64,000 nt of DNA, from positions 6,512,866 through 6,576,865 of the forward strand of contig CM037587.1 in NCBI GenBank assembly GCA_021018995.1, given 5' to 3'. The stretch is from Chloranthus sessilifolius (Eukaryota > Streptophyta > Magnoliopsida > Chloranthales > Chloranthaceae). The notes under the pieces were generated by a model that saw only the letters and a list, made by a program, of their open reading frames with translations, was not told the DNA's origin and made no database searches. The stretch's first letter is position 1. Every line of letters starts with the position of its first letter. Positions 5,731-38,955 of the stretch are shown here, piece by piece. The translations under genes and the position numbers were made by a program.

Positions 5731-6047
5731 AGTGTACCCAATACTTTGATAAAACCACTCAAAGTCGTACTAATGCAAGTGGTTACAAAATGCATATCAA
5801 ATATAAATTGAATTATGTTTCACTTTTGCATTTAAAGAAGGTAGATTCTACGGGCATCTAGGTTCAGTACAATGGACATGATATTGTCTTCAAATTTATC
5901 ACACAACCTCAAACTAAATTGGTAAATAAAATTGAAACCAATTTATTGTTCAAAGAACAACAAATCAATTTTCTTCAAAAAGATGTAACAATTTTAAACA
6001 TTCAGGATAAATTGCTTACTCCTAAGCTGAAACAATGAATTGATAAT

Positions 6048-6707
6048 TTGTTACAATCTTATCTCAAAGATATATGCAATGATCTTCCCAATGCATTTTG
6101 GGATAGAAAGAAACATATTGTTTCTCTTGCCTATGAAGACACTTCTAATGAAAAACATATTCCCACAAAAGCTCGTCCAAGTCAAATAAAAAATGATTAC
6201 CTGGAATTATGTAAAGATGAGATAAAATCTTTACTTGATAAAAAGTTAATTCGGAAAAGTTATTCTCCATTGAGTTGTACTGCTTCTTATGTGAATAAAA
6301 ATGCTGAAAAGGAACATGGTACACCCTGTTTGGTTATCAATTATAAATCTCTCAATGATTGTCTGCAATTGATTAGATATCCAATTCCAAATAAAAAAGG
6401 CTTATTGGATCGATTACATTTTGCTATTATGTGTTCCAAATTTAATCTCAAATCTGGTTATTGGCAGATACAGGTTGCAGAGGATGATCACTATAAAACA
6501 GCATTTACTGTCCGATTTGGACACTATGAATGGAATGTGATGCCTTTTCGATTAAAAAATGCTCATTCTGAATTTCAAAATATCATGAACGACATTTTTA
6601 CTCCTTATACGGCATTTTCAATTGGCTACATTGATGACATCCCAATTTTTTCCAATTCTATTGATCAACATTTCAAACATTTACAAATTTTTAAACTATT
6701 ATTCTGA
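6048..6707 (+). pseudogene. Pararetrovirus reverse transcriptase
   Basis: A 219-codon open stretch holds the RT palm and fingers typical of caulimovirid/Ty3 enzymes: LVINYKSLNDC (fingers), KFNLKSGYWQIQV (motif A with catalytic Asp), MPFRLKNAHSEFQ and the active-site YIDD at 6627-6638, which is intact. In-frame coding extends upstream to about 5880 through one stop at 6036-6038. Downstream, connection-domain text (FLGHNIHQGKLIP, LQRFLGSLYYI at 6765-6900) continues in another frame. It is a broken endogenous copy. Confidence 0.85.
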
Positions 6708-7044
6708 AAAATGGACTAATTTTTTCTGCTCCAAAAATAAAATTATTTCAAACTATTGTTTGATTTTTAGGTCATAACATTCACCAAGGGAAACTTATTC
6801 CTATTGATCGCAGTATTGAGTTTGCTTCTAAATTTCCTGATGAAATTATGGATAAAACTCAACTCCAAAGATTCTTGGGCAGTCTTTATTATATTAAATT
6901 ATATTAAAGACTACTATTCGAATCTTGCTCAAGATGCTGCCATTCTCTACACTCGTCTTAAATAGGAACCAAGTCCTTGAACTCCTGCTCATACAGCAGC
7001 TCTTTGTAAGATAAAACAAAGCCAAACAATTACCTTGTTTACAT

Positions 7045-7452
7045 TTGGCTACCCCAAATTATTCCAAGATTGTAGAAAAAGTTGCTTCTCATCTTGGATA
7101 CGGGGGAATTCTTAAACAAAGAGACTCTTCTACTAATAAAGAAGAATTAATTCGTTTTACTTCTAGCAGATGGAAAGATGTACAGAAAAATTATTCTACC
7201 GTCAAACAAGAAGTTTTATCTATAGTAAAATGTATTTTAAAATTTCAAGATGATTTATTAAATCAATCTTTTTTACTCCGCGTTGATTGTAGTTCTGCTA
7301 GACAAATCCTTAAAAAAGATATAAAAAATATTACATTTAAACAGATATTTGCCAGATGGCAAGCAGAATTGTCTGCTTTCGATTTTACCATTGAACATTT
7401 AGCTGGTTCTTCTAATTCTTTACCTGATTTTCTTACCCATAAATTTTTGTAG
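7045..7452 (+). pseudogene. Pararetrovirus RNase H domain
   Basis: The open stretch holds ASHLGYGGILKQ (the Asp of the usual DAS motif is lost), YSTVKQEVLSIV (catalytic Glu region), RVDCSSARQIL (Asp region) and a terminal ARWQAELSAFDFTIEHLAGSS block followed by a stop. This order and the absence of integrase afterwards are typical of caulimovirid polyproteins. The domain would degrade the RNA template after reverse transcription. It is continuous here but frameshifted from the RT. Confidence 0.82.
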
Positions 7453-36310: not shown

Positions 36311-37640
36311 TAAAACTGTTGCGCTTGTAGAGGATAGGTTCTTTTGGCCTAGCCTAATGAGAGATGTCGCCCGAGTCGTTAAGCATTGTCGTACTTGCCA
36401 AGTGTCAAAACAGATCAAACAAAATAATACCTTGTACACCCTTTACTCTATATGGATTTCGTGCTTGGACTTCCTAAGACCCCTAGGAAGCATGATTCCG
36501 TTTTTGTCATAGTGGACCGCTTTTCCAAGATGGCCCACTTCATTCCTTGTTCCAAAACCTTCGATGCGTCTCATATTGCTAAACTATTTTTCGCAGCGGT
36601 AGTGCGTCTTCATGGGTTGCCCAAAACCATTGTGTCTGATAGGGATGTTAAGTTTATGAGTTATTTTTGGAAGACCCTTTGGCACATGATGAGCACATTG
36701 CTCCAATTCTCTACAGCTTACCACCCTCAAACGGATGGCCAAATCGAAAGCACCAATAGGAGACTTGGGAATCTCCTTCGTAGTCTTGTCGGTGATCATG
36801 TTAGGACCTAGGATACCATCTTACCAACAGCTGAGTTTGCATATAATAATTCTGTCAATAGGTCCATAGGCATGAGTCCTTTTGAGGTAGTGCAGGGTCA
36901 TAGGCCCAGGACCCCATTAGACTTGATCCCCATGTCTGCATCCCATAGTGTCAGAGTCTGTCGATGCATTTGCACAACACATTCATAGTTTGCATGCCGA
37001 AATTAAACATAAAATTAATTCAAGCAACAATCAAAATAAATTATTTGCAGATGCTCACAGGTGTTCTAAAGAATTTCACGTGGGTGATTATGTGATGGTC
37101 CGAGTTAGGCCTGAGCGGTTTCCATCGGGATCCGCAAAGAAGCTCCAATCTCGAGGCGTTGGGCCTTTTAGAATTTTGGCTAAGAGTGGTCCTAATGCAT
37201 ACGTGCTCGAGCTTCCTCCAGGTACGGGGGTTAGTTCCACGTTCAATGTGAACTTGGTTCCTTACTTTGGTTTCACCCCACCTCCCAAAAACCCACTCCA
37301 ACCACCTCCTAGTCCCAGCCCCAATCCAACCTTGCAACCTATACCTCTTCCTTCCCCAAGCAGACAGAGAACAGATGAGATAGAGGATATAATCAACGAT
37401 CATGCCGTCTCTACACATGACGGGGGATTCCAGAAATACTTGGTTAAATGCGTCGGCAAACCAGAGTCCGAGAACACTTGGGTCCACGCGAATGAGGTTC
37501 ATCGCTTGAACCCCGACCTGCTAGACATCTACCACCAGCATGTTTCATCGGTGATGAAACCTTTTTGGTCCAGGGGAATTGACGGGGATGCCACATACAT
37601 GGACATTGGATTCGAACCGCATCGTTTCTACCGGCGTTGA
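36240..37640 (+). pseudogene. Gypsy B integrase and chromodomain
   Basis: The zinc-binding part at 36330-36430 (CRTCQVSKQIK) is followed by the core 36452-36811: MDFVLGLPK, IVSDRDVKF (catalytic Asp kept) and YHPQTDGQIESTNR, closed by TAG at 36809-36811. The C-terminal frame 36948-37640 has GPFRILAKSGPNAYVLELP and a chromodomain near 37370-37530 (EIEDIINDHAV, KYLVKCVGKPESENTW). Its final codons run through the 3' LTR boundary at 37580 and stop inside the LTR. Confidence 0.9.
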
Positions 37641-38613
37641 AATAAGCCGAATGGAAATCAAAATTAGGCAAAAGAGGCGAAAGAGGCGAAAGATGAAATT
37701 CTGGAAATTGAAGGAGCACAGAAAAATCGATTGATTAAAATTGAATTTCGATCGATCGAAATTAAAATTCGATCAATCGAAATGTCAACGGCGATATTTT
37801 ATCTATATGAGAATTTCGATCGAATGATTTTCAATTTCGATCGAACGATTTTCAGTTTCGATCGATCGAACGATTTTCAATTTTGATCGATCGAAATCGT
37901 GTCGGGTGTTTTAGAAATTGAATTTCGAACTTTTGCTTCAAGGGTTTATTTGTCTTTATTTAATATTCGTTTTAGGGTTTTCTTTTATTGAAAGGACTCC
38001 TATATAAGGTCCTTAAGTGAACAATGTAATTAGTTGATTGATTATTGAATGCTTTTATGTTTGAGTAATCTTTACCTGAGATGGGTTTGGTGTGAGACCA
38101 AGGGAGTGATCCCCCTATATTTTCCTTATTATTGTTGTTGATTTGCGTGGTTTGCTTGTATTTGATATCTCTAAATCTCTGCGTGTTTCTCTAAACCATA
38201 GCGTAATTTCTTCCTTGTGATCCCCAAAACCCTAAACCCTTTTGAAACCCCAAACCAGACAAAGCCAATACCTTTTCCAAAATTATAAACCGATCTAAAA
38301 GTCATAGACCTTTACAAACCGTAAATCCCTTTCACAACCAAATTTGGAATCAACGAATCTACATCGGATCGAAGATGAGCGCCTAATCCTAAAAAAGCTA
38401 GAGTACTCTCTCTAGGCTGATCTCGCCTCGACTCTAAAGTACTTGCGCATCGGACTGAACCCTATCTAGATCTCGTGTGATCTACCCATCAGAATTCTGT
38501 AAACCCTAAGGTATTAAAGATAATTTTGCGATTAAACTTGAATTAATTTATTTAATTTCGGCAAAATCTTCATTAAATCATATTCCGCATTTTAGGGTCG
38601 TTGTCCCGCGTCA
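37580..38613 (+). repeat. Gypsy B 3' LTR
   Basis: It pairs with 31762-32881 and is about 86 bp shorter, mainly in the TCGATCGA-repeat part of U3. The purine-rich CCAGGGGAAT precedes it as the polypurine tract. It ends GCGTCA at 38613. Confidence 0.93.
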
Positions 38614-38955
38614 AATTTTCAAACATTCTAAAAGAAAATATCGTCGATATTCTAACAAAGACGATAAATCCAAACCTTCTTCTAGATCTTATCGAGATAA
38701 GAAATCTAAAAGATCTAAATATGACATTAAATGTTATAAATGTCACAGATTTGGTCTTTATGCCAATAAATGTAAAACCAAACAAAAATTGGCTAACCTT
38801 CTAGTTCTTCTAAACTAGAAGATTCTGATTCCGAATAAATTAATAGTATTCATTCATCTTCTTCGTCTCATGAAGATACAATTTAGATTGCCATTGTAAT
38901 AATATTGACGCATCTAATGATACTTGGCAAGCCTTTGCTGCCATGAATAATTTTA
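38614..38955 (+). pseudogene. Endogenous pararetrovirus, segment 4: coat protein zinc knuckle
   Basis: Reading resumes after gypsy B with a Lys/Arg/Ser-rich basic stretch and CYKCHRFGLYANKC at 38732-38773, a CCHC knuckle whose His is replaced by Leu. An acidic Ser-rich stretch (LEDSDSE) and stops follow. The similarity to the viral plus strand ends near 38940-38955, where the sequence switches to an inverted copy of the intergenic region. Confidence 0.75.

What the first reader, a model, noticed from the sequence alone, without database searches (positions are those of the whole stretch)
5740..38955. Four scattered pieces form one circularly permuted pararetrovirus genome
Pieces 5740-7920, 20924-22405, 28828-31761 and 38614-38955 sit on one strand. 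Once LINE B, LINE C and gypsy B are set aside, they read RT, RNase H, ORF2, intergenic region, MP, CP, zinc knuckle. The total is about 6.9 kb, close to a caulimovirid genome. The order is permuted as if a circular genome opened between coat protein and RT. ORF2 and CP each continue across an insertion, and two of the three joints are proven by duplications. Family assignment to a petuvirus/florendovirus-like group is inference.
Basis: partly seen in the sequence, partly recalled or inferred. Interest (0 to 1): 0.8.

Follow-up and report, generated by a model that had tools for sequence, protein, structure and literature searches.

The report
Plant virus fossil split by transposons
A nearly complete genome of an ancient plant DNA virus lies in this plant chromosome, cut into four pieces by later jumping genes; such virus fossils are common in plants, but this one seems to come from an undivided lineage whose abundant cousins in the same genome carry their genes on two separate DNA units.

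Summary
The four pieces are caulimovirid DNA in the order protease end, RT, RNase H, ORF2, intergenic region, MP, CP, zinc knuckle; 6,939 bp. LINE B (holding gypsy A) and LINE C leave exact 16- and 17-bp duplications. Uninterrupted relatives in the host genome verify joint 1 (20 of 21 loci) and, in one copy, joint 3. RT groups with a caulimovirid RT, not the window's gypsies. An ORF behind RNase H fits Florendovirus; genus is unproven.

Missed by the finding: an inverted 1.3 kb ORF2-intergenic copy at 38961-40283; about 540 bp, with the protease active site, absent at the opening; and at least 150 RT and 150 CP relatives (both lists capped). In 30 of 30 scorable of 38 fetched loci the RT copy lacks the CP core, and a CP copy lacks RT: a two-component florendovirus. 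One old copy near the window carries CP, protease and RT together, a second has the same spacing, so the window is most likely one unsegmented, permuted genome.

The parts
5740..7920 (+). Piece 1: protease end (active site absent), RT 6039-6704, RNase H 7015-7449, ORF2 from ATG 7466
   Evidence: Pfam; protease alignment to P0092 from residue 47; start and stop codons
7905..7920 (.). Left copy of the 16-bp duplication of LINE B (right copy 20908-20923)
   Evidence: exact match
7921..20923 (+). LINE B, itself holding gypsy A
   Evidence: RVT_1 and zf-RVT hits at 17659-20513; duplication
8789..15324 (-). Gypsy A nested in LINE B, LTRs 91% identical
   Evidence: LTRs, 5-bp duplication CGTTT, gag, protease-RT and integrase hits
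20924..22405 (+). Piece 2: rest of ORF2 (stop 21743), intergenic region with TATAAATA at 22168
   Evidence: joined without gap to piece 1 in 20 of 21 relatives; motif
22389..22405 (.). Left copy of the 17-bp duplication of LINE C (right copy 28811-28827)
   Evidence: exact match
22406..28827 (-). LINE C
   Evidence: RVT_1 and DUF4283 hits
28828..31761 (+). Piece 3: end of intergenic region, MP 29402-29926, coat-like DUF7746 30943-31407
   Evidence: Pfam
31762..38613 (+). Gypsy B; LTR divergence K2P 0.074
   Evidence: LTR repeats, K2P, ends
38614..38955 (+). Piece 4: zinc-knuckle-like stretch and tail
   Evidence: by eye; whole piece aligned and adjacent to piece 3 in L049
38961..40283 (-). Piece 5 (not in the finding): inverted copy of 20935-22260, ORF2 and intergenic region
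   Evidence: 89.7% identity by blastn; alignment

Best explanation
An endogenous caulimovirid of florendovirus type. The four pieces are one unit-length stretch of an unsegmented genome (MP-CP-zinc knuckle-protease-RT-RNase H, then ORF2), about 93% complete, opened between the zinc-knuckle tail and the protease, with an inverted ORF2-intergenic piece of the same virus against its right end. LINE B (later hit by gypsy A), LINE C and gypsy B inserted afterwards and split it. Shown: the domains, the joints, the nesting order, the inverted piece, the colinear relatives. Inferred: capture as linearised viral DNA during repair of a chromosome break by end joining, as proposed for other endogenous caulimovirids; decay since then, so that it makes no virus; membership of an older unsegmented lineage, distinct from the abundant two-component one in the same genome.
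For: Domains. Duplications, nested gypsy A. RT: 124 bits to PDB chain 8r0s against 92 to Ty3, reversed for both window gypsies as controls; tree support 91/85. Joint 1 has zero net gap in 20 of 21 loci that cover it, of 38 fetched. L049: pieces 3, 4 and 1 in a row on one molecule, in the copy whose CP is nearest to the window (75%); L050: protease and RT at the same distance behind the 72% CP copy. 6,939 plus about 537 bp lies in the 7.2-8.5 kb range of florendoviruses (PMC4241990). ORF2 would be about 425 codons (455 + 819 nt). Inverted copy differs evenly over codon positions, 10/18/11, as after decay in the chromosome.
Against: The one junction that would prove an unsegmented genome (zinc knuckle to protease) is missing in the window. 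RT loci and CP loci are mostly apart in this genome, and a component A to B join would give the window's order. The window tail resembles B (2 of 2) and not A (0 of 12), its protease A and not B. The window RT is nearer to seven A copies (75.9-77.4%) than to L049 (72.7%). A rate test leaned to an old A/B split (813 and 923 of 1000 bootstraps, wide intervals). Gypsy B lacks an exact duplication.
Confidence: 0.78

Rival explanations
1. Composite of two genome components: a component-A fragment (protease end, RT, RNase H, ORF2, intergenic region) followed head to tail by a component-B fragment (MP, CP, zinc knuckle), joined at the shared intergenic region before the transposons came; not one circle.
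For: The genome holds CP-less RT copies (30 of 30 scorable) and an RT-less CP copy. In two capped lists of 150 places, 8 have CP about 5.6-6.0 kb behind RT on the same strand; the window distance in viral bases is 5,479. Tail B-like, protease A-like; rate test.
Against: L049 and L050 show that the lineage nearest to the window's CP had CP, protease and RT together; L049 is itself A-like in the protease and B-like in the tail, so these affinities are ancestral. Two independent ends meeting within about 0.5 kb of each other on the circle would be a coincidence (inference).
Confidence: 0.15
2. A slice of a head-to-tail concatemer of one unsegmented genome rather than a linearised circle; the cuts happen to fall about one unit apart.
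For: Head-to-tail units of 6.5-6.6 kb occur in L009 and L014; the review PMC10377300 names concatemers as a source.
Against: The unit is not longer than one genome, and no overlap of its ends is seen.
Confidence: 0.25
3. Ty3/gypsy retrotransposon remains mistaken for a virus.
For: The RT piece is 30-36% identical to the window's gypsy RTs.
Against: Bit scores with reversed controls, tree, movement protein and coat-like domain in the same unit, colinear relatives.
Confidence: 0.01

Closest known systems
Florendovirus, endogenous Caulimoviridae (Geering et al. 2014, PMC4241990; Results, part of Discussion and legends seen)
   Same: Domain order MP, CP with zinc finger, protease, RT, RNase H; a second ORF of fitting size behind it, in another frame in relatives; size; intergenic region before MP; insertion in transposon-rich DNA; rearranged loci
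   Different: RT under 80% identical to the seven abundant relatives compared in this genome (75.5-77.1%); ORF2 homology to named florendoviruses not shown
Bipartite florendoviruses of Vitis, Oryza, Sorghum (PMC4241990) and Beta (PMC10377300)
   Same: The abundant relatives: RT copies without CP, a CP copy without RT, shared intergenic region and MP, compound loci, unit 6.5-6.6 kb within the reported 5.5-6.9 kb; an unsegmented relative in the same genome, as reported for Vitis vinifera A virus
   Different: This describes the relatives, not the window copy; only one B copy was read to its intergenic region; the ORF2-like extension of B was not detected
Petuvirus (Petunia vein clearing virus)
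   Same: Same domain order in one polyprotein, sister group (PMC4241990)
   Different: No second ORF in Petuvirus; one is present here
Inverted-repeat endogenous caulimovirids that feed siRNA in tomato (Valli et al. 2023; seen only as cited in PMC10377300)
   Same: Inverted viral repeat of 1.3 kb at about 90% identity (pieces 2 and 5)
   Different: Arms are now 16.7 kb apart, 3.4 kb in viral bases; no small-RNA data

Membership tests
Caulimoviridae | RT of caulimovirid rather than Ty3/gypsy type | tested here: met
   124 bits to 8r0s (printed as Enzymatic polyprotein; that it is CaMV RT is recalled) against 92 to Ty3; controls reversed; tree 91/85, with a long-branch warning
Caulimoviridae | 30K movement protein with the RT in one unit, no integrase | tested here: met
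   PF01107; no integrase hit in the ten piece segments scanned nor in the segments
Florendovirus | Order MP-CP-zinc finger-protease-RT-RNase H | tested here: met
   Window order up to the opening; the missing junction seen in L049
Florendovirus | Second ORF of 45-58 kDa behind RNase H | tested here: inconclusive
   About 425 codons by position; open 438-codon frame in relative L012. Longest open frame beats chance in the ORF2 parts (28, 4 and 0 of 1000 shuffles), but also in the intergenic part of piece 2 (13 of 1000). No homologue found, lengths limited
Florendovirus | RT inside the florendovirus clade | not tested
   No named florendovirus or petuvirus reference sequence was on hand
Petuvirus | Single ORF, nothing behind RNase H | tested here: not met
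   ORF behind RNase H in the window and in relatives
Bipartite florendovirus (host relatives, not the window copy) | A lacks CP, B lacks RT, both share intergenic region and MP | tested here: met
   A: CP core absent in 30 of 30 scorable of 38 loci. B: L047, one copy; L048 shows no RT in the about 470 bp behind its protease match. IR-MP of L047 86.7% identical to A copy L012, below the over 90% reported for intergenic regions

The most novel reading that the evidence does not exclude
This plant genome records a further, perhaps independent, split of a florendovirus into two components: an old unsegmented lineage (window, C7 and C10 copies) beside an abundant one in which the coat gene was cut in frame out of component A and the polymerase out of component B. 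The window copy is a fossil of the undivided state, and its inverted arm may once have fed hairpin RNA against the virus.
Probability: 0.5. Interest if true: 0.5.

Novelty: new member of a known kind. Interest (0 to 1): 0.33.

Why it matters
Endogenous florendoviruses, their rearrangements and even two-component forms are known. The value lies in having an unsegmented lineage and a high-copy segmented one in a single assembly, so that the order of events in the partition of a reverse-transcribing virus genome can be dated and tested. The transposons that split the window copy give it a minimum age in units of LTR divergence: K2P 0.074 for gypsy B against 0.094 between the two viral arms; the difference is not significant (P 0.12).

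Tried and rejected
Ty3/gypsy origin of the RT piece: rejected. A tRNA-Met primer site at 22290: three mismatches, no better than chance (47 matches in the window against 41 expected). ORF2 fold: mean pLDDT 40.6, not searched further. ORF2 homologues: none among 376 candidates. Relatives in viral contigs: none. A solo LTR at 40283-42024 beside piece 5: its 5-bp match lies inside LINE-like coding sequence; dropped. Composite A-to-B origin: I held it as the better reading, until L049 showed coat, protease and RT on one molecule. The first estimate of the missing stretch, about 300 bp from component A copies, gave way to about 540 bp from L049. That DUF7746 is the coat core rests on its position and on recalled similarity.
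Full report
What is there. Every piece was searched alone. Piece 1 (5740-7920) holds the end of a protease, RT (RVT_1, E 3e-17) and RNase H (E 1e-17), then the start of ORF2 at an ATG at 7466, just behind the RNase H stop. Piece 2 (20924-22405) holds the rest of ORF2 (stop at 21743) and an intergenic region with TATAAATAGTAGTT at 22168. Piece 3 (28828-31761) holds the movement protein (PF01107, E 1e-11) and a DUF7746 coat-like domain (E 5e-31). Piece 4 (38614-38955) holds a zinc-knuckle-like stretch, seen by eye. 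The sum is 6,939 bp. GC is 0.29-0.34 in the pieces and 0.42-0.49 in the inserts.

The inserts. LINE B (7921-20923) leaves 16 exact bp, LINE C (22406-28827) 17 exact bp. Inside LINE B sits gypsy A (8789-15324) with its own 5-bp duplication and LTRs 91% identical. Gypsy B (31762-38613) has TG..CA ends at the joints, but its flanking 5-mers differ; its LTRs differ by K2P 0.074. Order shown by nesting: virus, then LINE B, then gypsy A; virus, then LINE C; virus, then gypsy B.

Family. The RT piece matches PDB chain 8r0s at 124 bits and Ty3 at 92 bits; both window gypsies, as controls, prefer Ty3. In a tree of 20 rows the window RT joins 8r0s and 14 public proteins, apart from Ty3 and the two gypsies (support 91/85), with P0001 and P0003 nearest (97/97); the tool warns of long branches. 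414 of 489 candidate proteins matched the RT, the best 68% identical; 5 of 11 matched the CP piece, the best 57%; none of 376 matched an ORF2 piece.

What the finding missed. (a) 38961-40283 on the minus strand is an 89.7% copy of 20935-22260, so the right end of piece 4 abuts an inverted ORF2-intergenic piece. Its differences from piece 2 are spread evenly over codon positions (10, 18, 11 of 177, 175, 175), as expected if both decayed after integration; by contrast the window RT differs from seven genome relatives by 87-94 third-position changes out of 147-157, as expected of replicating viruses. The edge of piece 5 lies 11 bp from the LINE B joint in homologous coordinates; I have no explanation. 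(b) Piece 1 starts at residue 47 of the protease of P0092, just behind its DSGAD motif, so the active site is not in the window.

Relatives in the host genome. The assembly has 2.17 Gb in 32 contigs; the window is C4:6512866-6576865. RT: 150 places listed, the cap; the best other is 78% identical. I fetched 38 of these 150 with flanks for mapping: 8 from the upper part of the list, 20 spread down it and 10 of lower score. Mapping the window pieces on them: 21 loci cover joint 1, and in 20 the gap between 7920 and 20924 equals the unaligned window bases, that is, no net gap (L043 differs). The order piece 3, 4, 1, 2 and 3 again recurs, with head-to-tail units of about 6.6 and 6.5 kb in L009 and L014 (coordinates). 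In 30 of 38 loci both flanks of the coat region aligned, and in all 30 the RT-bearing copy is shorter there than the window, by 0.94-1.29 kb in 29 and by 2.23 kb in the scrambled L018. The other 8 could not be scored. Of 4 loci examined for open frames, frames of 990, 841 and 945 aa run across this gap in L014, L012 and L015; in L009 the frame is split. A coat hit appears in 2 of 38 loci by tblastn (L018, L022), and coat-end DNA also in L035, each on the strand opposite to the RT copy. L047, which continues the L035 case, runs coat end, zinc knuckle, protease, intergenic region, MP, with no RT or RNase H match. These two classes match components A and B as described in PMC4241990.

One genome or two components? 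A coat search listed 150 places (cap, 501 candidates): the window itself, 7 at 69-75%, the rest at 59-67%. A table of the two capped lists gave 8 places with CP about 5.6-6.0 kb behind RT on the same strand, 5 with RT about 7.4-7.85 kb behind CP, and 2 with RT 0.8-3.5 kb behind CP (C10:32342832 and C11:22266953) (for minus-strand pairs the distances are off by about 0.2 kb). The window's RT-to-CP distance in viral bases is 5,479, so a component A-to-B join would look like the window. The window's tail behind the zinc knuckle resembles B (2 of 2 copies) and not A (0 of 12), its protease A and not B, and a rough rate test leaned to an old A/B split (813 of 1000 bootstraps on the same columns, 923 on all; wide intervals). 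These favoured a composite. Then the copy nearest to the window's coat (C7, 75%) was read downstream: in L049 the end of piece 3 (31446-31760, 87%), piece 4 (38615-38953, 74%), 537 bp, and the protease and RT of piece 1 (90% and 74%) follow one another. Behind a second old copy (C10, 72%) protease and RT lie at the same distance, about 2.1 kb (the stretch between was not fetched, the C10 spacing is worked out from coordinates). So an unsegmented genome of this lineage existed, and the mixed affinities are ancestral. Against this, the window RT is nearer to seven A copies (75.9-77.4%) than to L049 (72.7%), while coat end and first protease stretch are nearest to L049. I hold one unsegmented, permuted unit as likely (0.78) and the composite at 0.15. 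About 540 bp are missing at the opening.

How it works. It does not work as a virus: the RT-RNase H, ORF2 and MP-CP regions each change frame, and the protease centre is absent. The likely history is inference: viral DNA captured at a chromosome break by end joining, with a second fragment in opposite orientation; tandem and rearranged insertions are described in PMC10377300 (section 3.1). Both intergenic arms keep the TATA-like motif and face each other across MP and CP; a hairpin or antisense transcript is possible, as that review reports for tomato, but nothing here tests it.

Literature seen. PMC4241990: Results, first part of the Discussion, legends and tables. PMC10377300: first parts of sections 3 and 2, section 2.3 and passages. 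PMC13308828: abstract and passages. PMC9719215: passages. Valli et al. 2023 was not held. Listings.

Noticed in passing
L009-L047 (own genome): Abundant CP-less RT copies, and an RT-less CP copy (L047), in head-to-tail and inverted compounds: a two-component florendovirus with open frames of up to 990 aa across the coat deletion.
   Followed up: partly
C11:22266953 and C10:32342832 (own genome): The two listed CP places with an RT 0.8-3.5 kb behind on the same strand; the first has nearly the unsegmented spacing. Could not be fetched.
   Followed up: no
20935 and 40283: The edge of the inverted piece 5 lies, in homologous coordinates, 11 bp from the LINE B joint. Unexplained.
   Followed up: partly
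5380-5739: The left flank of the viral insertion reads like the remains of a LINE-type RT (by eye).
   Followed up: partly
81-1276: A third LTR of the gypsy B family at the window start with a 250-bp unit repeated in tandem.
   Followed up: no
42150-42530: GC-rich stretch of repeated CCCGGCC-like words inside LINE-like sequence on the minus strand.
   Followed up: no
44258-50677: Copia-type element on the minus strand: LTR copies, integrase and RVT_2 hits.
   Followed up: no
54184-56833: Cellulose synthase family gene fragments on the plus strand (PF03552, E 1e-71 and 2e-100).
   Followed up: no
58575-59511: Very AT-rich stretch (GC 0.23 at 58001-60000) with six diverged 83-bp repeats carrying TCAAACTTTGA-like words.
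   Followed up: no
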